From assembly GCA_947488605.1 (NCBI GenBank), contig CANKZJ010000001.1, forward strand, positions 1,019,603 through 1,083,602: a stretch of 64,000 bases of DNA, written 5' to 3'. The position numbers and the translations under genes are program-made. The notes beneath the pieces are model-generated. The model did no database searches. It was not told the origin of the DNA and saw only the letters and a program-made list of their open reading frames with translations. This DNA is from an uncultured Paracoccaceae bacterium (GTDB lineage: Bacteria > Pseudomonadota > Alphaproteobacteria > Rhodobacterales > Rhodobacteraceae). Of the stretch, positions 40,303 to 64,000 are shown piece by piece (positions within the stretch are counted from its first letter, which is position 1; each line of letters starts with the position of its first letter).

Positions 40303-41058
40303 TTAGTCTTTGCTGTCTTCATCATCTGGCAGGTTAAAGAAGCTATCCGCGTCGGACACGTCGCGTTTATCTGTTTCTTCTTCAGCTTCGCCATCACGTG
40401 GGTCGGACAAGCTAAATGTCTCAAGCCCAGCCAAAGCACTTGGCATTTTTGGCTCTGCCGGCATCGAAAGTGATTGCTCTGTACCAACGAGTTTGCGGCG
40501 CTCGTCATCGGACATAGCCGCGCCTTCTTTTTCCTTCTTGGCGTTGGCTTTTTGTACAGCCGCATCCAATTCAGACTGCTTGCACAGACCAAGCGCCACA
40601 GGATCAATCGGTTCGATGTTATTGATGTTCCAATGCGTGCGCTCGCGGATCGCCTGAATGGTTGGCTTTGTTGTACCAACCAGCTTGGAAATCTGACCGT
40701 CCGTTAATTCGGGGTGGAATTTCACCAGCCAATAAATTGACGCCGGGCGATCCTGACGCTTGGATAGCGGCGTATACCGCGGACCACGGCGCTTTTCTTC
40801 GCCAGCGGCAGCCGCATAAAATTTGAGCTTCAGTTTGTGCGCCGGATCAGCTTCGGCTTTGTCGAGCTCTTCTTGGGTCAACTGGTTGTTCGCAATCGGA
40901 TCAAACCCTTTAACACCGGTTGCGACATCACCATCCGCGATGCCTTGAACTTCGAGCTCATGAAAGCCACAAAAGTCGGCGATTTGCTTAAAGGTCAGCG
41001 TTGTGTTGTCACAAAGCCAAACAGCGGTCGCTTTGGCCATAATCGGTTTATCGGACAT
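40303..41058 (-). CDS. DUF1013 protein, cell cycle transcriptional regulator TrcR-like
   Basis: ATAVWLCDNTTLTFKQIADFCGFHELEVQGIADGDVA; conserved alphaproteobacterial family. Confidence 0.85.
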   Translation of the reverse strand: MSDKPIMAKATAVWLCDNTTLTFKQIADFCGFHELEVQGIADGDVATGVKGFDPIANNQLTQEELDKAEADPAHKLKLKFYAAAAGEEKRRGPRYTPLSKRQDRPASIYWLVKFHPELTDGQISKLVGTTKPTIQAIRERTHWNINNIEPIDPVALGLCKQSELDAAVQKANAKKEKEGAAMSDDERRKLVGTEQSLSMPAEPKMPSALAGLETFSLSDPRDGEAEEETDKRDVSDADSFFNLPDDEDSKD

Positions 41059-41194
41059 CTTTCATCTCCATCTTATCAGCGCACATGCCTCTCCCGCACC
41101 CTTGAATTGGGCAGACTACGTTAGCAGCCGGGTTCGCATTGTCGGGGAACTTGAGGTGTATATAGTGATGGTGATGAAAATTGGAAAGATCAAA

Positions 41195-41824
41195 ATGCAT
41201 CGGGTTATTGCCCTCTTCCTCATCCTGGCAGCGCCATTGCCCGCGCAAGATCGTGCAGGTGACTTTGATTACTATGTGATGTCGCTGTCATGGTCCGCCA
41301 ATTGGTGCGCCATTGAAGGGGATGCGCGCAGCTCGCCGCAGTGTGATGCCACTGAGGACTTTGGTTGGATTTTGCATGGGCTATGGCCGCAATACGAGCG
41401 TGGCTTTCCGGCAAATTGCGTCACAAGCCAACGCCCACCCAGCCGCAGCGATACAGGTGCCATGGCCGATATCATGGGAACCGCTGGACTGGCATGGCAC
41501 CAATGGCGCAAACATGGTGTCTGTTCCGGCCTAACGTCAGATGCGTACTATGAGTTGTCCCGCGACGCCTATGCCCAGATCGAACGACCTCAGATTCTGC
41601 GCGACCTCGACCGGTCGGTAACTCTGCCCGCCAAGTTGATTGAAGACGCCTTTCTGGATGCAAATCCAACACTTGAACCTGATCAAATCACAATCACCTG
41701 CAAGCAAGGCTACATTCAAGAAGCTCGCATTTGTCTCACGCGTGATCTGACGTTCAGGGACTGCGGCGCAGATGTCGTTCGTGATTGTAATATGACAAAC
41801 GCACAGTTCGATCCCATGCGTTAG
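41195..41824 (+). CDS. Ribonuclease T2 family protein
   Basis: DYYVMSLSWSANWC, WILHGLWPQYERGFPANC, WHQWRKHGVCS (CAS motifs); signal peptide; exact start uncertain (ORF opens 41003). Confidence 0.88.
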   Translation: MHRVIALFLILAAPLPAQDRAGDFDYYVMSLSWSANWCAIEGDARSSPQCDATEDFGWILHGLWPQYERGFPANCVTSQRPPSRSDTGAMADIMGTAGLAWHQWRKHGVCSGLTSDAYYELSRDAYAQIERPQILRDLDRSVTLPAKLIEDAFLDANPTLEPDQITITCKQGYIQEARICLTRDLTFRDCGADVVRDCNMTNAQFDPMR

Positions 41825-44564: not shown

Positions 44565-44745
44565 ATTTATCATATAAATAAGGGTTTTTTGATTTTCCGA
44601 ATCTCCTTATTGGAACACTATTGTAACCGCTATTGGGACAAGGATTGAATGTAAGCCCATTTATTCACACGTTGATCCATCCGTTGGCAGAGAAACAACT
44701 CGTCGCCTTTGATGACTGGTGATGGTCCTACCTTCGGCAATCGGT

Positions 44746-45915
44746 TCAACTCAAACTGGCCGACCTCGGGTCGTAGGCCAGCCCCTTGATCGATCCATCC
44801 CTGATTCGTTCGACAGCTTCATCGATTGCGAACACCGGAACGAGGAACCATTCTCTCGGAACTACAGGGTGACCAAACCGATCCTTGATTTCGATATCCA
44901 GACGCGCTCGTTCAAAGATACGGTGAAGCAAATTCTCCAATTTGACCCGATTGATGTTGTAGAGTTCATAGGTTGTGACGATGTCCACGTCGGCCATGAG
45001 GAACGTTGGGTCGAGTTTTGCGTTGGCGATGCGGCGTTCGACCGTACCACCAGTGACACCGATCTTGTGGAGTAGGTCACGATTTTCAGCCACAATCGGA
45101 AGGTCGGACTTACTGCGTAGAACATAGATCGTCCCGCTGGCCTCATCGCCATCAGTCGAGGCATCAGTGAACAATGGGCCAGCATCGGCTTCAGTCACCC
45201 GTCGGCTGGCGTCGTCATCGTTAAGAGCGCGTTGAAGTGACCGCATTAAGAGATTGCTCTCGGTACCATTGTCAAAGATCACACGCAGCCGAGCTTCAGT
45301 CATTCCGTTTTGGTTGACATAAACGTCACCTTTTACGGCGACATATGCTTTCATCCCCTTGAGAACGAAGAACCGCCCGACTTCGATTTCAGACTTCGCC
45401 TCAAATGGTCGAGTTGTTCGTAAACCAGCATCAAGCTCGGCTTGCACCTTTTCGAACAGCGGTTTGAACTTGTCAAAATCCGCGCAGGTTTCGCGGTTGG
45501 CGATCTCCTCTGCTGCCCGCTTCTCTGCGACGGGCCGCACATGCCGAAGCTGGGTGATATCATCCGCTACATCATCCAAATCCTCCAATTCGGCGGCCAA
45601 CGCATCGAGATCGAGTTCATCGTCAGCCTCGGATGCCTCTGTCGCCCCCTGGAGCAGCCCCTGGTGGTCAAGTGGCTTCAGGATGGCCACATAGTCAGCA
45701 GATGCAGCGAGGCGCTCTAGTCGTACCGCGTAGAGCCGCTCAAAGATATCCCGATCCTCGCCATACTGGGGCGGATGCTCTTCACGTTCCGTGAACCGTT
45801 GAATTTCTTCAAAGCCTGCGATCACCCGTTCTTCAATCGGGGAGCGTTTGACTAGCTTCTCCTCGACATCGAACTCAGCAAGATCACCGGCAAGGGCATC
45901 AAGGTCATCACTCAT
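44746..45915 (-). CDS. GIY-YIG nuclease family protein (T5orf172-like domain)
   Basis: GTIYVLRSKSDLPIVAENRDLLHKIGVTGGTVERRIANAKLDPTFL; likely start ATG 45915 (MSDDLDALAGD). Confidence 0.82.
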   Translation of the reverse strand: MSDDLDALAGDLAEFDVEEKLVKRSPIEERVIAGFEEIQRFTEREEHPPQYGEDRDIFERLYAVRLERLAASADYVAILKPLDHQGLLQGATEASEADDELDLDALAAELEDLDDVADDITQLRHVRPVAEKRAAEEIANRETCADFDKFKPLFEKVQAELDAGLRTTRPFEAKSEIEVGRFFVLKGMKAYVAVKGDVYVNQNGMTEARLRVIFDNGTESNLLMRSLQRALNDDDASRRVTEADAGPLFTDASTDGDEASGTIYVLRSKSDLPIVAENRDLLHKIGVTGGTVERRIANAKLDPTFLMADVDIVTTYELYNINRVKLENLLHRIFERARLDIEIKDRFGHPVVPREWFLVPVFAIDEAVERIRDGSIKGLAYDPRSASLS

Positions 45916-47956
45916 AACGACCCTCTTTGCGGAACCGCATAAACGCAGTGGCACCCTCGGCCATCAGCTTCTCGTATGGGTCAGTTGCAGTCATCGATGG
46001 TGAGCGTCCATTTTCCTTTTTGAAGCGGCTGGCCCGTTTTGCCCATGTCACGGCGTCTTCTGGGCTAATCTGCGTCCGCTTCGAGGTGATAACGGCTTGC
46101 ACCTGTTTCAATCGTTCTTCATCCATCGACTTCGATAGGATCGAGTATGCCTCGTTGAACGGGTTGATGGCATCAATCAGATCGATATCAAGATCGCGCA
46201 CATCCATGGCGAACTTACGGACCCCGTCGATCAGCGCGGTGTTGGCAGTTGGCTCTCGATCATCATCGTCTTCAAGCACAGCTTTCTTGGCCTGCTGGGT
46301 CAAGTTCATCGCGGCGACAGCACGTTGACGCACAGCCTCAATATCGCCCTCCTCCAATTCAGGATACCGATCTTTGATAATCTTCCCCATGCGCACGACT
46401 GTTAGTTCTTCAGGAACCAATTCCTCATCGAAGAGACCACGTTCAATCACGGGCTTGTCCTGTACGAATGCGGTGATCACTTCATTCAGGTCTTCCTGAC
46501 ATATCCGTTCAGCTTCTTTGGTCTTCGGCTCGGCGAGGCCCTTGATCTCAATCTGAAACTGACCGGTTTCTTCATTGAAGCCGACATTGGTCTTTGTGGG
46601 ATCATACCCGTCTTCGCCATACTCAAATCCCGGCTCCTCTGTGGAAGTGGTTGTTTTCGGCGTGAAGTTAAAACGTGGGGCAAGGACCTGCTCCATCAAC
46701 AGACTCGCGGCAATGGCTTTGAGCGTATCGTTGATCGCTTCGGTCACTGCGCCTTCCGATGCATCGGGTTCAGCTATCAAGTTGGTGAACCGTGAACGGG
46801 TCTTACCAACCGCATCACGTGTGGCACGGCCAATGATCTGGACAATTTCGGTCAGACTGGCACGGTATCCGACAGTCAGGGCGTGTTCGCACCAAATCCA
46901 GTCGAAGCCTTCCTTGGCCATACCAAGCGCGATGATGAGGTCTACATGATCGCGGTTGTTCTTCTGGTTTGGTTCCTTCAATGCAGTGGAAACTCGTTCG
47001 CGTTTGCTGGGATCATCCTCCACCAGATCAGCGATCTTGATTACACGGCCTTCAGCGGTTTTCACTAGATGGAAGCCCGTCGTCGAATCAGTTTCCACAT
47101 ACTCGCCAAGAGCGTCAATGATGTGATCGACCTCTTTGTGCTTGTCGCCGGTACTCTCCCGTGCGTTCACGTTCGGGATGTGCAGGATCGTTTTCTCATT
47201 CGGGTTCAGAACCGACAGCAGTTCATCCGCATATGAACCAGTGTAAAAGAAATACCCGATATCGAGCGTCTTCAGATGCTCGTAACCATTCAACTGCTCG
47301 TAGTAGGTATAGGTGACCGTGTCGAACTTGGACTCATCCTCGGGGGACAGCACAGCCTCTGCATCACCACGGAAATAGCTACCGGTCATGGCAACGACAT
47401 GCACCCGATCACGGGCGATCAACTGGCCCAGATGTGCGCCCAGTTTGTTGTCTGGATTGGCGCTGACGTGGTGGAATTCATCGACGGCGATCAAACGATC
47501 ATCGAAGACCTCAATACCAAACTTATCGACCGCGAACCGAAACGTAGCATGGGTGCAGATTAGGATACGGTCATCGCTTTGGAGGAATTTTCCGACAGAC
47601 CCAACCTTACCATCGTCGCCGCCGGGTACGTTGCAAAGGTTCCACTTTGGAACGACCGTCCAATCGGACCAGAAACCATACTTTGATAGTGATTCGTTAT
47701 TGAAACTCGACCCGATGGATTTCTCCGGCACCACCACAATGGCCTGTTTCAGCCCTTGATTTTCCAACTTGTCCAAAGCGATGAACATCAACGCCCGAGA
47801 TTTACCCGAAGCTGGTGGGGACTTGATCAGCAGGTATTGTTCACCGCGCCGTTCATAGGCCCGCTCTTGCATGGCCCGCATGCCGTATTCGTTCGACGTA
47901 GTGGACGCACCGTTCTGGGCGTAGGTGACGGAGACTGAGGGGATCGGTTTGGTCAT
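45908..47956 (-). CDS. SF2 DEAD/DEAH-type helicase (ResIII-like)
   Basis: Walker A LIKSPPASGKSRALMF, DExH-like LIAVDEFHHVSA, motif VI region VQIIGRATRD. Confidence 0.88.
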   Translation of the reverse strand: MTKPIPSVSVTYAQNGASTTSNEYGMRAMQERAYERRGEQYLLIKSPPASGKSRALMFIALDKLENQGLKQAIVVVPEKSIGSSFNNESLSKYGFWSDWTVVPKWNLCNVPGGDDGKVGSVGKFLQSDDRILICTHATFRFAVDKFGIEVFDDRLIAVDEFHHVSANPDNKLGAHLGQLIARDRVHVVAMTGSYFRGDAEAVLSPEDESKFDTVTYTYYEQLNGYEHLKTLDIGYFFYTGSYADELLSVLNPNEKTILHIPNVNARESTGDKHKEVDHIIDALGEYVETDSTTGFHLVKTAEGRVIKIADLVEDDPSKRERVSTALKEPNQKNNRDHVDLIIALGMAKEGFDWIWCEHALTVGYRASLTEIVQIIGRATRDAVGKTRSRFTNLIAEPDASEGAVTEAINDTLKAIAASLLMEQVLAPRFNFTPKTTTSTEEPGFEYGEDGYDPTKTNVGFNEETGQFQIEIKGLAEPKTKEAERICQEDLNEVITAFVQDKPVIERGLFDEELVPEELTVVRMGKIIKDRYPELEEGDIEAVRQRAVAAMNLTQQAKKAVLEDDDDREPTANTALIDGVRKFAMDVRDLDIDLIDAINPFNEAYSILSKSMDEERLKQVQAVITSKRTQISPEDAVTWAKRASRFKKENGRSPSMTATDPYEKLMAEGATAFMRFRKEGRYE

Positions 47957-48462
47957 ACGTCGTCCTCGGACTTGGCTAGTGGGGGAATTTCAAATGGGGC
48001 CAGTATCTTCGTGGCCCACGCAGGGACGCTTGGCCATGAATAGCTGCGGTGTTCGCTCCATGATTTGGATTTGTTGATCTTGTCAGCTTCACTGATCAAG
48101 ACACCCACATGGTCGTGAGGGTAAACGTAGCAACGTTCATTCTTACGATCAAAGAAGGCGATATAAAGACCCTTTTTCTCGTACTTCTTATTCAGCGTCA
48201 GTCGACCCTTGAGTTGAACGCGATAGAAGTCTTTTCCATTATGGTGGTAGGCGATAAAGTCTGCGCCCTGCCAATCGTCTGACAATAAAAGACTGTTGTA
48301 GCCGTAATCGGCAAGCCGCGCTGCAATCTTGTGGAAATTGTAGGTTTCCTTCTGTCGGGCGTTCATTGCCGCATACGCGGTGGGTGCAAGCACCAAAGGT
48401 TCACTATGCTGCTCAGACATTGATAAATCCGCATGGCTCGGATGCCAGCAGTCCTCTTGCAC
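47953..48462 (-). CDS. Hypothetical protein, PD-(D/E)XK nuclease-like
   Basis: GADFIAYHHNGKDFYRVQLKGRLTLNKKY: D-x(n)-QxK pattern; possible start ATG 48420. Confidence 0.6.
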   Translation of the reverse strand: MQEDCWHPSHADLSMSEQHSEPLVLAPTAYAAMNARQKETYNFHKIAARLADYGYNSLLLSDDWQGADFIAYHHNGKDFYRVQLKGRLTLNKKYEKKGLYIAFFDRKNERCYVYPHDHVGVLISEADKINKSKSWSEHRSYSWPSVPAWATKILAPFEIPPLAKSEDDV

Positions 48463-48525
48463 TCGATTTCGTAGGCTTACCCTTCTTAGGACATCTGAAG
48501 GTGGCTGAGCGGATTGCGCGACTCA

Positions 48526-48735
48526 TCAATTTGCCTTCGCGTCGAAGTGGTCAACAAAGGCTGCAATCGAACCATACTCTTGCTTAATCCTGGGTGCGGC
48601 CTGATGCATGAATTGCTGGCCATCCTCCAAAGTCCATCGGTGGTGTGCGAACATCACCCGATAGCTACCGTTGAAATGAGCCTTCGCGATACGTGATATC
48701 GCCTTGGCATCCCAGCCCGGTTGTTTTTCTCTCAT
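48526..48735 (-). CDS. Hypothetical small protein
   Basis: 69 aa ORF whose start overlaps the preceding stop by 1 bp. Confidence 0.5.
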   Translation of the reverse strand: MREKQPGWDAKAISRIAKAHFNGSYRVMFAHHRWTLEDGQQFMHQAAPRIKQEYGSIAAFVDHFDAKAN

Positions 48736-49226
48736 CAGTGCTTGGGTCCCCGCTTTGGCGTGTCGAGCCTATGGCCGTTCAGCATTTTGCGTTGCTCCTT
48801 GGTCAGCATCGCGGCCTTCTTCTTTTTTGCCTCGTACCGTGCCGTCGCTTTGCGGAAAGCACTGACATCCATCACAACACCTTCGGCTTTTGATTGCATG
48901 TTCTTCTTTAAAACAGGCTCACCGTCCGTGATCAGAACGCCCTGCATCTTTTCCGCGAACGCCGGACAGCCATGTTTGGGCCAAGGCGCTCCCAGATCAT
49001 CAAAAAACACCTTACTTCCAGCATCGTTGCGATAAAAAAAGACTCTCTTGCCACAGCCCCAACAATTCATCTGATAGGTTTGTTGGCCGTTCACATGTGC
49101 ATTGCCATGCCGCCACGATAGCCTTTGTGAGTGAGAGGCATCGCCCGGAGCGAAATCATGTTCGCGTACCTTGGTCGTTCTTCCAGATGACAGCTTTCTT
49201 GTATGTGCGCTTCTCTTCGATGTCAT
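48735..49226 (-). CDS. Zn-ribbon-containing hypothetical protein
   Basis: CWGCGKRVFFYRNDAGSKVFFDDLGAPWPKHGCPAF; 4-bp ATGA overlap with the upstream methyltransferase. Confidence 0.7.
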   Translation of the reverse strand: MTSKRSAHTRKLSSGRTTKVREHDFAPGDASHSQRLSWRHGNAHVNGQQTYQMNCWGCGKRVFFYRNDAGSKVFFDDLGAPWPKHGCPAFAEKMQGVLITDGEPVLKKNMQSKAEGVVMDVSAFRKATARYEAKKKKAAMLTKEQRKMLNGHRLDTPKRGPKH

Positions 49227-51982
49227 TGCTTCGGCACCTCTCGGGTCATCTTCGTGTACATCTCAAAGAGCTTCTCCAGCCGCTCGGTGTCGTTGCGGAA
49301 GCGTCTGCCGATGTAGATGCGTTCCAGCACTTCGTCGTTGCGGTCGTGGGCGGCGCGGAGGTTTTCGGGCATGGCGTCGGGTTTGTAGAGGTCGGCGATG
49401 GTCGCGGGGAAATGCGCCTCGCGGGCCAGCAGGATATCCTCTGCACAGCGGGTCAGGTCGGACTTGTTTTTTTCGGTGAGCTTGGGGACGGGGAAAGTGT
49501 TCCAGCCGAGGGTGTTGGAGTAGCGGAAATCGGTCTTCAGTTTGCCACAGACGGTAGCGATCCATACGAGGTGGATGCGGGAAGCTATTAGAGCCATATT
49601 CCAAAGTGGGGCGTCGTAGAGGGCAAACGTACTATCCGTAACAATGGATTGTTCTGGTAGAAAACCGCATGGCAAGTAATTTCGAGTTTCGGAAGATACC
49701 CTTGGTACTGCGATTACCAACTCTCCACCAATCTGCCTTAGTTCGTCAAAACGATGTGGGTTACTTGCTCCAGCGCGAGTAGCTTCTTTCGAGCTTGCGA
49801 GACGCATCTCCCGTACCGCTTCAATTCGGGCCAACACTGATGGGATCATTTCTGCTTCTTCAGCGTGCTCGTCAGTTATCCAGAGGCAATAGCGCTGAAT
49901 ACCCCGAATAAATTCGGCAGAACCAAACACTGGTCTTATGTAGGCATCCCGTTGATCGTGACTGAGTCCCAGTTCTTCAACTTCACTCGACGTTAAGAGA
50001 AGGTTTCCTCCGTCGGTTGGCTTGCTTCCGTAGTCCATTTCGGCGGTCTTACTGATTGGTTTTTGCGCCTTAACAACGACTATGCTTTGTCCACCAACAA
50101 GGTACGCATTTAGGTTCTGGACTTCATGCACAAACACCTCACCGCTATCACCAACCGAGAACAGTTTCTTTTCGCGACCTTTCACATTGGTGATCGCAAC
50201 AATCGCCACGGTCACGCCCGCATTGTGGCTGGCAAGGTTCGCCCATTTGAAGGACGTGTGAGCAAAGGTGATCTCATGTCCATCTCTGAAGATCGAAGGC
50301 CAGAGGATGGGAACCTGCTGCCCTTGGCAAATTGAGTTGGTGGTTACAAAAGCGCTGACAGTCGGCGTGTGTAGTGCGTAGTCCGCTGCCTTCATAAACC
50401 ACCCCGCAACGTAGTCCAGCGACTTCCAGCCCTTCACCCGACCGTCAAAGATACGGCCAAGGTCTTCTTTCTGTTCCGTCGATTGCCACGTTGACCCCAA
50501 ATACGGCGGGTTCCCACAAATATAGGTCTCACCACCCTCATTCTCGAAATCAATCGCGGCTTGTTCTAGTGGTGTATCGAAAAGATCATCCGAGGTCAGC
50601 TTGACCGCTTTACCGGTAGGCGGACAGACATCCAGCCAGTCCAGCCGCAGAGCGTTGCCTTGAGTGATCCAGTTCTGCGCATCCAATGGCAGGAAGGTGT
50701 CCCGTGCCACCTTGGGGCCACGGTACAGCACGTCACACTGATACTCAGCGATGATCAGGGCCAGACGGGCGATCTCGGCTGAGAAATCCCGCAGTTCGAT
50801 CCCACGGAAGTTCTGGATGCTAATGTCCGACGCCCGGTCCGCCTCTCCCCGTCGTTTGTTGATCTTGGCCTCGATCTCTCGCATCTGTTTGTAGGCGATG
50901 ACGAGGAAGTTGCCCGACCCGCAGGCCGGATCGAAGACACGGATGTTGGACATCCGTTTGCGCAGGTTGATCAGCTTTTGTGGGCTGTCACCGGCGCGGT
51001 CCAGATGGTCGTTCAGGTCATCGAGGAACAGCGGGTTCAGCACCTTCAAGATATTCGGCACCGAGGTGTAGTGCATACCCAGTTTCGAGCGTTCCTCATC
51101 ATCGGCCACGGCTTGGATCATCGACCCGAAGATATCAGGGTTGATCCGCTGCCAGTTCAGGTTGCCGATCTTGATAAGGTACCGTTGCGCGATGAGCGAG
51201 AAGCGCGGCACCTCTGTGCTGCCCGAGAACAGGCCGCCGTTCACGTACGGGAAGGCATCGGCCCAGCGGGGCAGGTCTGCGGTGGCACGATCCTTGATCG
51301 GTGTGTTCATCGCACGGAAGAGTTCGCTGATCACCTCATGCGTGTTGGACCCATCACGGTTGGCCATCGTTTCGACTGTTGCGGTGAAGAGGTCATCACC
51401 AGCTAGGATGTCGGTATCCTCGGCAAAGAAAAGAAAGATCAGACGGGCCATGAAGTGGTTCATCTCATGGCGGCGTTCAGGGGTACCCCATTCGGGGTTG
51501 TCGGATCGTAGCGTGACGTAGAGCTTATTCAGCCGCAGCGTGGCCCGTACGTCGAACTCGGACTCGCTGAGTTGCTTTGTTTTGCTGAGGCCAGCCAGTG
51601 GCCAGAAGAAGACGAAGTGGTTCGGGAAGTCGTCGTATTTACAAGAGACGATATCACCAGAGACGAGGTCTTCGGCTTCGAAATGCTCACCATCAGTGGC
51701 CAGTACAAACCGGACCTTGTTGCGTTTGGTCTGGGTCGCCTTACTGTCCTTCAGCGCGGTCAGCGTTTCTGGAACGAGGCCCACATCGCAGGTTTTGATA
51801 TGGATGTTCCCAACCTGAAGAACCCCATCGATGTCAGATTTGTTCGACGTACCTTTGCGCAGCTTCTTGGACCGCGCATCGCTGTTGTCGAAGCACTCCA
51901 AGAACGCGAACGGGAACTCGGCAGCGTCATATGGCTGGTCGGCCAACTCACTGATGGCCTGTTCGATTTCAACTGCGTTCAA
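49223..51982 (-). CDS. Class I SAM-dependent DNA methyltransferase, MmeI-like (Type IIL architecture, 919 aa)
   Basis: LGMHYTSVPNILKVLNPLFLDDL, FDPACGSGNFLVIAYKQMREIE, GNPPYLGSTWQSTEQKEDL, TTNSICQGQQVPILWP. Confidence 0.88.
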   Translation of the reverse strand: MNAVEIEQAISELADQPYDAAEFPFAFLECFDNSDARSKKLRKGTSNKSDIDGVLQVGNIHIKTCDVGLVPETLTALKDSKATQTKRNKVRFVLATDGEHFEAEDLVSGDIVSCKYDDFPNHFVFFWPLAGLSKTKQLSESEFDVRATLRLNKLYVTLRSDNPEWGTPERRHEMNHFMARLIFLFFAEDTDILAGDDLFTATVETMANRDGSNTHEVISELFRAMNTPIKDRATADLPRWADAFPYVNGGLFSGSTEVPRFSLIAQRYLIKIGNLNWQRINPDIFGSMIQAVADDEERSKLGMHYTSVPNILKVLNPLFLDDLNDHLDRAGDSPQKLINLRKRMSNIRVFDPACGSGNFLVIAYKQMREIEAKINKRRGEADRASDISIQNFRGIELRDFSAEIARLALIIAEYQCDVLYRGPKVARDTFLPLDAQNWITQGNALRLDWLDVCPPTGKAVKLTSDDLFDTPLEQAAIDFENEGGETYICGNPPYLGSTWQSTEQKEDLGRIFDGRVKGWKSLDYVAGWFMKAADYALHTPTVSAFVTTNSICQGQQVPILWPSIFRDGHEITFAHTSFKWANLASHNAGVTVAIVAITNVKGREKKLFSVGDSGEVFVHEVQNLNAYLVGGQSIVVVKAQKPISKTAEMDYGSKPTDGGNLLLTSSEVEELGLSHDQRDAYIRPVFGSAEFIRGIQRYCLWITDEHAEEAEMIPSVLARIEAVREMRLASSKEATRAGASNPHRFDELRQIGGELVIAVPRVSSETRNYLPCGFLPEQSIVTDSTFALYDAPLWNMALIASRIHLVWIATVCGKLKTDFRYSNTLGWNTFPVPKLTEKNKSDLTRCAEDILLAREAHFPATIADLYKPDAMPENLRAAHDRNDEVLERIYIGRRFRNDTERLEKLFEMYTKMTREVPKQ

Positions 51983-51985
51983 GGT

Positions 51986-52405
51986 TTATTTCCTAAAGAT
52001 CAGTTCGATCAGCCGCCGGTGGCGTGACGGGTCGAATTCTTGCTTAGGGTGATTGAAAACATACTCGATTTCGGTCTGGTAGACCTCAGCTACTGCATCC
52101 GCGACTTTCTCGGGAGAGGGGCGCACATCGAGATTGGCGATGGTATGCTCGATCTCGGTAACGACCTGCTTCAACCGGTCCATGTCCAGCCGGTGCGGTA
52201 GCCTCACGATGGAACCCTCCAGAAGCGCACCAGCCGATACGTCAAATATCTTGGCCAAATCGCTAAGCCGTTCGGTAGTAACTGCCGACAGACCCGCCTC
52301 CAGACGAGAATATGACGCTGGCGTAATTTCCAAAGCACCGGCGACCTGCGCCTGTGACATGCCGACCTGTTGGCGGGCCTCTTTGATCTTCCCATGTAAC
52401 GACAC
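51986..52405 (-). CDS. XRE-family HTH regulator (C-protein-like)
   Basis: IKEARQQVGMSQAQVAGALEITPASYSRLEAGLSAVTTERLSDLAKIF; 3 bp from the methyltransferase start. Confidence 0.85.
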   Translation of the reverse strand: MSLHGKIKEARQQVGMSQAQVAGALEITPASYSRLEAGLSAVTTERLSDLAKIFDVSAGALLEGSIVRLPHRLDMDRLKQVVTEIEHTIANLDVRPSPEKVADAVAEVYQTEIEYVFNHPKQEFDPSRHRRLIELIFRK

Positions 52406-52414
52406 AGCGTCACC

Positions 52415-52435
52415 TCAAACATGAACTGTGTTTGA
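52415..52435. promoter_or_regulatory. Candidate XRE operator palindrome
   Basis: TCAAACA-TGAACTG-TGTTTGA, 7-bp perfect arms, 10 bp upstream of the XRE start. Confidence 0.5.
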
Positions 52436-57560: not shown

Positions 57561-58289
57561 TCATTCCATATCGAAGACCCATAGATATGAATGCGGCTTT
57601 CTTGCATGGTGCTGGATGTCCCATCGGGAATTTGGAACCCGTGATGTTGCGTCGAGGATGAACAGGTCCCGTCCGACCAATCCGATATCTTCTGCGTCGG
57701 CAAGGACATGGTGGTGCAGCCATCGTTGCCTCTGGCCGCTGACCTGATCCTTGCACTTCACCCAAACCTGACGACGCGCAACACGTGCCGCCTCGATGAC
57801 CCCCAACCGGTAAAGTTCACGGATGTCTTCATATAGCAAACCCTTTGTTGTCTCAGCGTTGCGATAACGGTCATCAGTGAAATGCGCACCGGGACTCGCA
57901 ATGTATGGCGGATCGAGAACAACAATATCAAACTCATCATCAGCGTATGGCAGGTCTCGAAAATCAAATGGTCGTTCTGGAACTGTGAGTAGATCTGAGC
58001 CGGTGACGTTCAGGTGAGGTGCCTTCTTCCAGAATGCGCCCCTTCCAAAAGTGACGTCGGCAATCCGCAAAGACGGATCGGTTGCGTAGAGGCGGGCCAC
58101 CTGTTTGATCAGGTCAGCATTGCCACCTCGCACCAGCGCCTCGACGGGTTTGTTCTTCACGTTCTGTCTACGTCGGTAGTCTGCCTGTCGGCAGCGGTTG
58201 GAACAGAACCGTCTGTCAGACCGGCTCGTTGTTGCTGGGATTGGATCGCGACAATGGATGCAAGCCGTAACGGAAATATCGGTATTCAT
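57561..58289 (-). CDS. DNA adenine methyltransferase-like protein with N-terminal Zn finger
   Basis: N-term CIHCRDP...CSNRCRQADYRRR; motif I-like IADVTFGRGAFWK; motif IV LDPPY. Confidence 0.75.
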   Translation of the reverse strand: MNTDISVTACIHCRDPIPATTSRSDRRFCSNRCRQADYRRRQNVKNKPVEALVRGGNADLIKQVARLYATDPSLRIADVTFGRGAFWKKAPHLNVTGSDLLTVPERPFDFRDLPYADDEFDIVVLDPPYIASPGAHFTDDRYRNAETTKGLLYEDIRELYRLGVIEAARVARRQVWVKCKDQVSGQRQRWLHHHVLADAEDIGLVGRDLFILDATSRVPNSRWDIQHHARKPHSYLWVFDME

Positions 58290-60217: not shown

Positions 60218-60850
60218 TTGACAACCATATTCTATGCAAGAGTTTCAACGCGGGACCAAACACTCGATCACCAGATCGTGCAGGCTAGGGCAGCGGGTTT
60301 TGAGATCGATCAGGTGGTCGCCGACCACGGTGTATCCGGCGTCAAGCACAGGCTGGATGAACGTCCAGAGGGGCGCAGGCTCTACGATAAACTTCGGAAC
60401 GGTGATACACTTGTACTGCGATGGTTGGATCGCCTAGGGCGTAACTACGATGACGTGACCGATGCGGTGCGGCATTTCATCCGACAGGGTGTGATCATAC
60501 GAACGGTGATCAACGATATGACGTTTGATGGTTCAACCACTGACCCCGTCCAACAGGCCGTCAGAGACGCAATGATCGCGTTTCTCGCAGCCACTGCACA
60601 GGCGCAGGCTGAGGCGACAAAGGTCGCACAGCGGGCTGGAATCGAGCTTGCAAAGGAAAAGGGAGATCGGTTTCGAGGGCGTAAACCGTCATATGATCGC
60701 AAGACATTTGATGAAGCCGTGAATCTACTGGGGCTTGGTAACGGACCAAGTACGGTCTCAAAGGAGACAGGGCTATCCCGCCAAACTTTGATCCGAATCC
60801 GAGATGACCCAGCCGCTGCTGCTGCGGCAATGGATCGATGGGGACTTTAG
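60218..60850 (+). CDS. Serine recombinase (resolvase/invertase family)
   Basis: IFYARVSTRDQTLDHQ, LRWLDRLGRNYDDV, GRKPSYD...HTH; probable TTG start. Confidence 0.9.
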   Translation: MTTIFYARVSTRDQTLDHQIVQARAAGFEIDQVVADHGVSGVKHRLDERPEGRRLYDKLRNGDTLVLRWLDRLGRNYDDVTDAVRHFIRQGVIIRTVINDMTFDGSTTDPVQQAVRDAMIAFLAATAQAQAEATKVAQRAGIELAKEKGDRFRGRKPSYDRKTFDEAVNLLGLGNGPSTVSKETGLSRQTLIRIRDDPAAAAAAMDRWGL

Positions 60851-60967: not shown

Positions 60968-61654
60968 ATGCCTGATCAACAAGAAGTGCCAGAGACCGCA
61001 ATTATCCGCGGCTGCACGGTATACGCCACACCAGTCGCGAGACGTGAGAAGCTGAAATCTTTAGGTATACCTGAGCAACTTCTTATTGATGCAGTGCAGT
61101 ATGGCGTCGCCGAGAAGTTGACCCAGGTGGTTTACGATCCAGCTACGTCCGGTGGTATAGACCTTTACCGATACACCACGAGAGAAGTTCGTCGCGGACT
61201 TCACGAACTTGGGTGGGAACTGAGCGACAGCAACAATATCGCGCTAGTGCGAAACCCTATAAACGACACGACTGTTATCGTGTGCAGTGGGGATCAGCAA
61301 ACGGGTCAATTGATCGGTGATCTGCCGAAGACAAAACGCTCGAAGGGTGAGGTGTTCTTGGAAGTTACCGAAGTTCAATCCGTTGATCTATTCGGAAATG
61401 AGGAAGTCACCACACGGCTTGTTGCTGTACCAGACAAAGAGGTCTGGCTGCTGCTTCACTACCACTTGGATTGCAAAGACGGACAAACTCTACGTGCGGA
61501 ATTGTCTCGACCATTAGAGGCTGAGGACGGGATAATCACGAAATGGAGTGAGAGGATTATCTTGCACATACCACTTCCTGATGCGATGCCGGACGACGAT
61601 TCTGGCACCGACACCGGGCCTGTTGTCATTCCAAATGTGAAGATTAGGATTTGA
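60968..61654 (+). CDS. Hypothetical protein, partner of XRE-ImmA/IrrE
   Basis: 228 aa ORF ending 1 bp before the next start. Confidence 0.65.
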   Translation: MPDQQEVPETAIIRGCTVYATPVARREKLKSLGIPEQLLIDAVQYGVAEKLTQVVYDPATSGGIDLYRYTTREVRRGLHELGWELSDSNNIALVRNPINDTTVIVCSGDQQTGQLIGDLPKTKRSKGEVFLEVTEVQSVDLFGNEEVTTRLVAVPDKEVWLLLHYHLDCKDGQTLRAELSRPLEAEDGIITKWSERIILHIPLPDAMPDDDSGTDTGPVVIPNVKIRI

Positions 61655-61655
61655 A

Positions 61656-62729
61656 ATGAATGGAAGTAGGTTGTCCGTTGCTAGAAAGCGGAAGGGCTTA
61701 ACAAGGCCACAGCTTGCTGAGAAACTCGGGGTAACTTCACGCACCATTAATGGTTGGGAAACCGGTGCAGAAGTGCCTGAAGAGCGGATTGATTCGTTGG
61801 TCAGGGAGTTGGGGTTTTCGCGTGGTTTCCTTGGACTAGCCGACCCGGCAAGTGTCTCCACCAATGCTGTTAGCTTCCGCTCCCTTAGCAGGAAATCCGC
61901 AACCCAGCGTGACGCTGCGTTGGCGATGTGTGACATGGCAGTCGATTTGTCTGAGTGGATTGATCCTCGGTTTGGGCGCAATGATGTCGCGATAGCCGAT
62001 CTGTCAGAGGAAGCGCCCGATTTTGCCGCCGATCTATTGCGGAGAGATTGGGGCCTCGGGCATGCGCCACTCTCCAATTTGATCCATCTACTTGAAGCAA
62101 AGGGCGTCAGGCTATTTGGGCTTCCTGACAACTGTCGTGAGATTGATGCATGCTCTTTTTGGCTCGATGACATCCCGTACGTGCTTGTGGATACAACGCG
62201 ATCAGCAGAACGCATACGCTTCAATCTGGCCCACGAACTCGGGCATTTGGTTCTTCATCGTCACGGTGCACCAGTTGGGCAGACCGCCGAAAAGGAAGCA
62301 AACTTATTTGCGTCGAATTTCCTGATGACAACTTCAAGCCTTCACCAGCACCTGCCAAGACAAATGTCAGTAGGGGCCTTGGTTAAGTTGAAGAGAAAAT
62401 GGGGCGTTTCGGCCATGGCGCTGGCCTACCGATTGAATAAGATTGGACGGCTTAGTGATTGGCATTACAAGACGATGATTATCGAGATGCGGAGACGGAA
62501 GTACCACGAGGTTGAGCCGGAACCCATTCCACACGAACAGTCCTATGTTCTGGATGTCGTGTTGCGCACCTTGGTCTCACGGGATATTTCACTCCGCTCG
62601 ATAGCCGACGATACCAACCTGCCGCTGTCAGAGATCGTCGGATTGATGCAAGGCTTGGCGACTTTGGCAATCTCTGAACATGACATGGCCACCCCCACTG
62701 AAAGAAGGGCTGAGCTACGATTAGTGTGA
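61656..62729 (+). CDS. XRE HTH / ImmA-IrrE family metallopeptidase fusion
   Basis: HTH LARKRKGLTRPQLAEKLGVTSRTINGWETG; HEXXH NLAHELGHLVLHRHG. Confidence 0.9.
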   Translation: MNGSRLSVARKRKGLTRPQLAEKLGVTSRTINGWETGAEVPEERIDSLVRELGFSRGFLGLADPASVSTNAVSFRSLSRKSATQRDAALAMCDMAVDLSEWIDPRFGRNDVAIADLSEEAPDFAADLLRRDWGLGHAPLSNLIHLLEAKGVRLFGLPDNCREIDACSFWLDDIPYVLVDTTRSAERIRFNLAHELGHLVLHRHGAPVGQTAEKEANLFASNFLMTTSSLHQHLPRQMSVGALVKLKRKWGVSAMALAYRLNKIGRLSDWHYKTMIIEMRRRKYHEVEPEPIPHEQSYVLDVVLRTLVSRDISLRSIADDTNLPLSEIVGLMQGLATLAISEHDMATPTERRAELRLV

Positions 62730-63037: not shown

Positions 63038-64000
63038 TTATGCGGCGTGTTTGCGGTGATGCAAGCGTCGCGCTTCGAGTGTCTTTCGTTTGATCCTTTC
63101 GCGTTGTTGCAGAATGGCTTTGTCACGCCCAAAGTAGACGTCAGCTGGTGTGACGTTGTTGATACTCTCGTGATAGCGCTGGTGATTGTAGTGGTCGACG
63201 AAGGCTGCGATCTGGGCTTCAAGATCACCGGGCAGGAAGTAGTTTTCTAGCAAGATGCGGTTCTTGAGTGTTTGGTGCCAGCGTTCGATCTTGCCTTGGG
63301 TTTGCGGGCGATACGGCGCACCGCGCGAGTGCTTCATGCCTTTGTCGTGCAGCCATTCCGCCAGGTCCCCAGAGACATAGCTTGAACCGTTGTCACTGAG
63401 CAGGCGCGGCTTGTGAACGACATGCACCTGATCACAGCCAGACGCCTGCAATGCGAGGTCCAGCGTATCCGTCACGTCCGCCGCGCGCATGTTTGTGCAG
63501 AGTTTCCAGGAGACGATGTAGCGGCTGTAGTCGTCGAGAACCGTGCTGAGGTAAAACCAGCCCCATCCCATCACCTTGATATAGGTGAAGTCAGTTTGCC
63601 AAAGCTGGTTGATGGCCGTCGTCTTGTGCTGGAACTCATTCGCTGCCTTGAGCACAATGAAGGCGGGACTGGTGATCAGATCATGGGCCTTCAGCACACG
63701 GTACACCGTAGATTCCGAGACAAAGTAGCGTTTCTGATCCGTGAACGTCACTGCCAATTCGCGCGGCGACAGCTCTGTTTCCTGCAAGGCGAGGTCGACA
63801 ACCTTGCGCTTCACCTCGTCAGGAACACGATTCCAGACGTGCTTCGGCTTGGGAGATAGATCCTGCAATCCAGCCTCACCGCGTTGCAGATAACGATCAT
63901 ACCAACGGTAGAATGTCGTCCGTGGGATACCCAGTTTGGCCAATGTCCGACGCGCCGACAGATGGCTTTCCTCGACCAGCCGGATGATCTCAAGCTTCTC
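63038..64000 (-). mobile_element. IS3/IS481-type transposase, 5' end beyond window edge
   Basis: DDE rve core QTDFTYIKVMGWGWFYLSTVLDDYSRYIVSW, LLSDNGSSYVSG, GKIERWHQTLKNRILLE; upstream frame EKLEIIRLVEESHLSARRTLAKLG open to the edge. Confidence 0.88.

What the first reader, a model, noticed from the sequence alone, without database searches (positions are those of the whole stretch)
44746..52435. Seven-gene overlapping operon: candidate undescribed restriction/defence system
On the minus strand the order is XRE, 919-aa MmeI-like methyltransferase, Zn-ribbon protein, 69-aa ORF, PD-(D/E)XK-like ORF, SF2 helicase, GIY-YIG nuclease. Junctions are mostly 1-8 bp overlaps or a 3-bp gap, with one gap of about 63-105 bp before the PD-(D/E)XK-like ORF. 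This implies co-transcription and co-inheritance. Established knowledge: MmeI enzymes are normally single-chain restriction-modification proteins that need no helicase. Coupling one to a helicase and two separate nuclease candidates suggests a multi-subunit modification-guided system. The set does not match the compositions I know for BREX (no PglZ/BrxC), DISARM (no DUF1998/DrmB), Druantia or Zorya. It could still be a known but less familiar type.
Basis: partly seen in the sequence, partly recalled or inferred. Interest (0 to 1): 0.88.

Follow-up and report, generated by a model that had tools for sequence, protein, structure and literature searches.

The report
Three-protein restriction system carrying swappable cargo
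This is a real, widespread bacterial DNA-defence operon whose three-gene core (a DNA-marking enzyme that has lost its own scissors, a DNA motor and a separate cutter) was noticed before in Bacillus subtilis, while the other genes here are a control protein and exchangeable passengers sitting in a slot that keeps being refilled.

Summary
Among 82 loci found through the helicase, the MmeI-like methyltransferase is detected in 77 and the GIY-YIG protein in 81. The core is therefore MTase-helicase-GIY-YIG. All 73 MTases aligned lack the N-terminal ExK nuclease motif; stand-alone MmeI enzymes of the same family have it and have no helicase neighbour. This is the dnmA-yeeB-yeeC arrangement of B. subtilis, already proposed in the literature as a 'Type I-like' R-M system, with a phage phenotype reported for Vibrio crassostreae and none found in B. 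subtilis. New here, as far as I could find, are two exchange sites. Near-identical operons differ only in the target-recognition block and in the genes between the MTase stop and the next gene. That slot is filled in 56 of 77 loci, with co-oriented cargo: RhuM, YhcG, AlbA_2, PLD-like, Abi-like or PD-(D/E)XK. Verdict: a known but poorly characterised R-M kind, with an unreported cargo-slot organisation. The restriction activity and the cargo function are inferred, not shown.

The parts
49223..51982 (-). Core 1: MmeI-like adenine methyltransferase and specificity subunit (919 aa, TTG start); N-terminal nuclease domain without ExK, gamma-MTase, TRD, C-terminal helical domain
   Evidence: Pfam MmeI_N/hel/Mtase/TRD/C; H61 at the Glu position in 73/73, DPACGSGNF and NPPY conserved; 77/82 loci
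45908..47956 (-). Core 2: SF2 helicase/translocase (682 aa; YeeB-like)
   Evidence: DEAD/ResIII; invariant ASGKS, DEFHH, GR.TRD motifs; fold matches to SF2 helicases, HsdR of EcoR124I among them
44746..45954 (-). Core 3: GIY-YIG/T5orf172 nuclease (402 aa; YeeC-like); likely real start ATG near 45915
   Evidence: MUG113 9e-15, T5orf172 4e-11; G274, K297, G299, R308, E340 in 79/79; 81/82 loci, always adjoining the helicase
51986..52405 (-). Head regulator: XRE-family HTH protein (139 aa), probable repressor of the operon
   Evidence: HTH_3 1.1e-14; related ORF at the same place in L007 and L030 only; other loci have other small DNA-binding ORFs there
47953..48462 (-). Slot cargo: small PD-(D/E)XK-fold protein with D...QxK (169 aa, perhaps ATG at 48420)
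   Evidence: Q83-L-K85-G-R invariant; AF2 pLDDT 77; top fold hits I-Ssp6803I, SPARDA nucleases, Hjc; 11/82 loci
48735..49226 (-). Slot cargo: small protein with CxxC...C zinc-ribbon-like motif (163 aa)
   Evidence: one related cargo in the same slot of L032, 50%; otherwise one partial match in 385 class genomes
48526..48735 (-). Slot cargo remnant or small protein (69 aa), like the N-terminus of a 392-aa T5orf172-type cargo
   Evidence: 42% to the N-terminus of the cargo ORF of L043 in the same slot

Best explanation
A three-component, helicase-dependent restriction-modification system of the DnmA-YeeB-YeeC kind. The MmeI-like protein recognises an asymmetric site through its TRD and methylates one adenine on one strand. 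Its N-terminal nuclease domain is dead and probably serves as a docking platform. On unmethylated foreign DNA it recruits the SF2 motor, which translocates and delivers or activates the GIY-YIG nuclease (Type I-like division of labour). XRE controls expression. The genes between MTase and helicase are exchangeable passengers, probably accessory anti-phage effectors, carried in a slot where cargo is replaced while the core stays. Shown: gene content, motif loss, core conservation, purifying selection, TRD and cargo replacement. Inferred: complex formation, translocation, cleavage, regulation, cargo function.
For: Core co-conservation and the same three-gene order without cargo in Staphylococcus, Arthrobacter and Klebsiella plasmids. 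ExK absent in 73/73 core-linked MTases and in the plasmid copies; present in five stand-alone MmeI homologues, none with a helicase or GIY gene in the flanks held. Helicase and GIY catalytic residues invariant. dN/dS 0.037 (helicase) and 0.078 (GIY) against L007, while the TRD is only 44% identical and N and C domains are 94-96%. L024/L025: DNA 93-98% identical apart from the TRD block and the cargo gene. Slot filled in 56/77 loci, 70/70 ORFs of at least 130 aa co-oriented. Literature: phage phenotype of V. crassostreae deletions (PMC9973331).
Against: B. subtilis dnmA-yeeB-yeeC gave no phage or transformation restriction under the conditions tested (PMC9973331, PMC7261158). No activity is shown for this locus. 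One-strand methylation leaves open how newly replicated host DNA is spared. The helicase model is low-confidence (pLDDT 65), so no docking surface is shown.
Confidence: 0.74

Rival explanations
1. Restriction relic: only the MTase is active, as an orphan epigenetic regulator, and helicase and GIY no longer restrict, as concluded for B. subtilis DnmA.
For: B. subtilis deletions gave no phage or transformation phenotype; DnmA methylation affects gene expression (PMC7261158, PMC9973331).
Against: Here helicase and GIY are under stronger constraint than the MTase, have all catalytic residues, and spread as a unit on plasmids and between genera.
Confidence: 0.12
2. A true multi-nuclease machine in which the PD-(D/E)XK protein and the Zn-ribbon protein are obligatory subunits beside GIY-YIG.
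For: Tight overlaps in the window; PD-(D/E)XK fold and invariant D...QxK.
Against: The PD-(D/E)XK ORF is in 11/82 and the Zn-ribbon ORF in 1/82 loci; 21/77 have no cargo; PD-(D/E)XK relatives occur with no core homologue within the ~6 kb fetched on either side.
Confidence: 0.05
3. The slot genes are not effectors but anti-restriction safeguards or recombination tools that tame the system during transfer.
For: Several cargo families have no defence annotation; operons move between genera.
Against: RhuM, YhcG and PDC-S11 cargo match PADLOC defence candidates at up to 5e-171; cargo-free operons exist.
Confidence: 0.09

Closest known systems
DnmA-YeeB-YeeC cluster of Bacillus subtilis (MmeI homologues without nuclease motif flanked by helicase and T5orf172 genes)
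   Same: Gene order MTase-helicase-GIY/T5orf172; MmeI-like MTase without ExK; helicase with SF2 motifs
   Different: Window has an XRE head gene and three ORFs in the MTase-helicase slot; B. subtilis YeeB/YeeC are reported to lack C-terminal stretches (PMC9973331) and show no phage phenotype
DnmA-YeeB homologues of Vibrio crassostreae (Piel 2021, as cited in PMC9973331)
   Same: Same cluster; deletion of the dnmA or yeeB homologue raises sensitivity to some phages
   Different: Not read directly; cargo content unknown to me
Type IIL/IIG MmeI (5HR4)
   Same: MTase, TRD and C-terminal domains align over their length
   Different: MmeI-type enzymes cut with their own N-terminal D...ExK and need no helicase; motif lost here
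Type I R-M with embedded modules (PrrC in EcoprrI; RptR-DarTG2 island of EPEC, PMC12255303)
   Same: Specificity/MTase plus SF2 motor; regulator at the head; accessory genes embedded before the motor gene
   Different: No HsdS and no HsdR; nuclease is a separate GIY-YIG protein; MTase and recognition in one chain
Type ISP enzymes (LlaGI, LlaBIII)
   Same: gamma-MTase, TRD, SF2 motor and nuclease acting on asymmetric sites
   Different: ISP fuses all in one chain with an Mrr-like nuclease; here three proteins with GIY-YIG

Membership tests
DnmA-YeeB-YeeC-type 'Type I-like' R-M | MmeI-like MTase without N-terminal ExK | tested here: met
   73/73 have His at the Glu position; controls with EQK
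DnmA-YeeB-YeeC-type 'Type I-like' R-M | SF2 helicase gene and T5orf172/GIY-YIG gene downstream in this order | tested here: met
   same order on Bacillota and Actinomycetota plasmids
DnmA-YeeB-YeeC-type 'Type I-like' R-M | Direct sequence homology to the B. subtilis proteins | tested here: inconclusive
   B. subtilis sequences were not fetched; MmeI_N rings in the B. subtilis control genome and other Bacillota homologues align at 42-44% (helicase)
DnmA-YeeB-YeeC-type 'Type I-like' R-M | m6A on one strand of an asymmetric site; restriction of unmodified DNA | not testable with these tools
   needs methylome and plaque assays
Type IIL (MmeI) R-M | Intact PD-(D/E)XK nuclease in the same chain | tested here: not met
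Type IIL (MmeI) R-M | gamma-MTase plus TRD in one chain | tested here: met
Type I R-M (HsdRMS) | HsdS subunit and HsdR with fused nuclease and motor | tested here: not met
   no such domains in the operon; helicase without nuclease domain in Pfam
BREX / DISARM / MADS | PglZ, BrxC, DrmB or MAD partner proteins | tested here: not met
   only MTase-level matches to PglX, DrmMI and mad2
Type ISP | single-chain nuclease-motor-MTase-TRD | tested here: not met
   separate ORFs
Embedded-defence cargo | Genes inside another defence operon, co-oriented and replaceable | tested here: met
Embedded-defence cargo | Anti-phage activity of the cargo | not testable with these tools
   needs phage assays

The most novel reading that the evidence does not exclude
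The slot holds interchangeable guard effectors of the restriction core, silent while it works and released when a phage inhibits it, as PrrC is by EcoprrI. The operon would be a two-layer defence with two independent cassettes: TRD for specificity, slot for back-up weapon.
Probability: 0.2. Interest if true: 0.75.

Novelty: new variant of a known kind. Interest (0 to 1): 0.5.

Why it matters
This locus and its relatives have intact, constrained helicase and nuclease genes and show natural swapping of specificity and cargo. They are better test subjects than B. subtilis for the open question whether it restricts DNA. The slot is also a list of new candidate defence genes, several with no entry in PADLOC.

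Tried and rejected
PADLOC, NCBIfam and PHROGs for a named multi-gene system: none. phmmer of the PD-(D/E)XK ORF in the PDB gave only chance antibody matches; the fold search was used instead. phmmer of the helicase in the PDB: nothing. GC profile: no clear step at the island edge. Promoter and terminator scans: no more than chance. Repeats near XRE: only weak short pairs, no convincing operator. Zn-ribbon search in 385 genomes: one partial match. Morgan 2009 and Makarova 2011 are not held; they are cited through later papers. Tree label counts: cargo states need 40 changes on the helicase tree, but no shuffled control was printed, so no significance is claimed.
Full report
Observation. The seven minus-strand ORFs are present with the junctions described. 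Pfam gives HTH_3 for the head gene; MmeI_N, MmeI_hel, MmeI_Mtase, MmeI_TRD and MmeI_C for the 919-aa protein; DEAD and ResIII for the 682-aa protein; and MUG113 and T5orf172 (GIY-YIG superfamily) for the 402-aa protein. The 169-aa, 69-aa and 163-aa ORFs have no family above cut-off. PADLOC recognises only the MTase, as a Type IIG enzyme (2e-290), and names no multi-gene system.

What is co-conserved. With two congeneric loci these make 82. The MTase is detected in 77 and GIY in 81; the PD-(D/E)XK ORF is in 11, XRE in 2, Zn-ribbon in 1 and the 69-aa ORF in 1. GIY always adjoins the helicase (81/81 between -200 and +3 bp). The MTase-to-helicase gap is under 100 bp in 21 of 77 loci and filled in 56. 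Plasmids of Staphylococcus, Arthrobacter and Klebsiella have the three genes alone. Ligilactobacillus has the same order with a disrupted MTase gene. The machine is therefore three genes; the others are optional.

A dead nuclease domain. In 73 core-linked MTases the position of the catalytic Glu of the N-terminal PD-(D/E)XK motif is His in all, and the Lys position varies, while Asp50, DPACGSGNF and the rest of the N-domain are conserved. In the same bacterial family, five stand-alone MmeI homologues read D...EQKS (L087, L088, L089, L092, L094) and have no helicase or GIY gene in the flanks held; one of them is on a contig of only 4.6 kb. Homologues from Bacillota and Actinomycetota also lack ExK. 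Loss of the built-in nuclease thus goes with gain of helicase and GIY. That the dead domain serves as a docking platform is inference.

Active, diversifying system. Against the Cognatishimia copy (L007), dN/dS is 0.037 (helicase), 0.078 (GIY), 0.045 (XRE), 0.14 (PD-(D/E)XK) and 0.19 (MTase). Within the MTase the N, spacer and C domains are 94-96% identical but the TRD only 44%. Over all 73, 9% of TRD columns are near-invariant against 34-54% elsewhere. All helicase motifs and the GIY residues G274, K297, R308 and E340 are invariant. This is the pattern of a working R-M system changing its specificity.

Two exchange sites. L024 (Sulfitobacter) and L025 (Tritonibacter) are 93-98% identical in DNA on either side of two replaced blocks: about 0.8 kb covering the end of the MTase domain and most of the TRD, and the interval from the MTase stop to the next gene, which holds the PD-(D/E)XK gene in one and an unrelated 294-aa gene in the other. 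L010/L016 and L043/L052 repeat the pattern. In L024 and L029, and more faintly L022, L026 and L028, a copy of the first ~100 bp of the helicase gene lies in the slot upstream of the AlbA_2 gene, the scar of an earlier insertion at the MTase-helicase junction. All 70 cargo ORFs of at least 130 aa point with the operon. Recurrent cargo: RhuM (PADLOC PDC-S05), YhcG/DUF1016 (PDC-S02), a NucS-like PDC-S11, AlbA_2/Schlafen, a weak DrmC-like protein (PLD-type by eye), a weak AbiV-like protein, the PD-(D/E)XK protein and several families without a match. The head of the operon varies likewise: VapC-like, HTH, ribbon-helix-helix-like or XRE ORFs (by eye).

Ten aligned members share D62/D63/D68 and Q83-L-K85-G-R. 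The model (pLDDT 77) matches PD-(D/E)XK nucleases first: I-Ssp6803I, SPARDA nucleases, fuselloviral D212 and Hjc (E 1e-3 to 2e-2, probability about 1). In three other alphaproteobacterial genomes it has no core homologue within the ~6 kb fetched on either side. It is a recruited passenger, not a core nuclease.

Surroundings. Synteny with five congeners ends at 44565, the end of the aldehyde dehydrogenase gene; the operon opens an island of at least 19 kb that runs to the contig end. The island also has an RmrT/RmrA pair (60968-62729; RosmerTA, name from my own knowledge), a resolvase/invertase and a transposase. The helicase is found in 17 of 376 genomes of the class and on 264 plasmids (154 with at least 80% cover), with no full-length phage copy.

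Prior art. B. subtilis dnmA-yeeB-yeeC has this order and a nuclease-less MmeI homologue; Morgan 2009 is cited as proposing a Type I-like system. No effect on transformation or on three phages was seen, and the authors call it a relic (PMC7261158, PMC9973331). They also report, from Piel 2021, that deletion of the homologues in Vibrio crassostreae raises sensitivity to some phages. Embedding of defence genes before the motor gene of Type I systems is described (DarTG2 between hsdS and hsdR, PMC12255303), and PrrC is silenced by its linked R-M enzyme and released by a phage anti-restriction factor (PMC2610378 abstract). I found no description of a cargo slot in the MmeI-helicase-GIY system; the library is open-access only, so this is not proof of absence.

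Verdict. An intact member of a known but poorly characterised three-protein R-M kind, with variable regulator and cargo.

Noticed in passing
window 60968-62729 +: RmrT/RmrA-like pair (PADLOC 8e-42 and 8e-121; HTH plus IrrE-type peptidase), a second known defence system in the same island.
   Followed up: partly
window 60218-60850 + and 63038-63943 -: Resolvase/invertase-like and transposase-like genes in the island (PHROGs 3e-34 and 8e-49).
   Followed up: no
window 57561-58289 -: Phage-type DNA methyltransferase (phrog_24333, 7e-36) in the island, possibly an orphan MTase.
   Followed up: no
L138:3289-5985: In Ligilactobacillus salivarius the MmeI-like gene has an internal piece (residues 171-253, about 236 bp) on the opposite strand, perhaps a phase-variable inversion; only weak inverted repeats were found.
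   Followed up: partly
L024:8219-8316, L029 slot: Copy of the helicase gene's first ~100 bp inside the cargo slot upstream of the AlbA_2 gene: scar of cargo insertion.
   Followed up: partly
L149:6349-6756, L151:6701-7138, L148:6421-6912: Relatives of the PD-(D/E)XK cargo occur with no core homologue in the ~6 kb fetched on either side, one of them in a 1.2-Mb genome; function unknown.
   Followed up: no
window 41003-41824 +: Secreted-type ribonuclease T2 family gene just left of the island.
   Followed up: no
L150:6414-7573: Two tandem, diverged copies of the PD-(D/E)XK cargo in the MTase-helicase slot.
   Followed up: no
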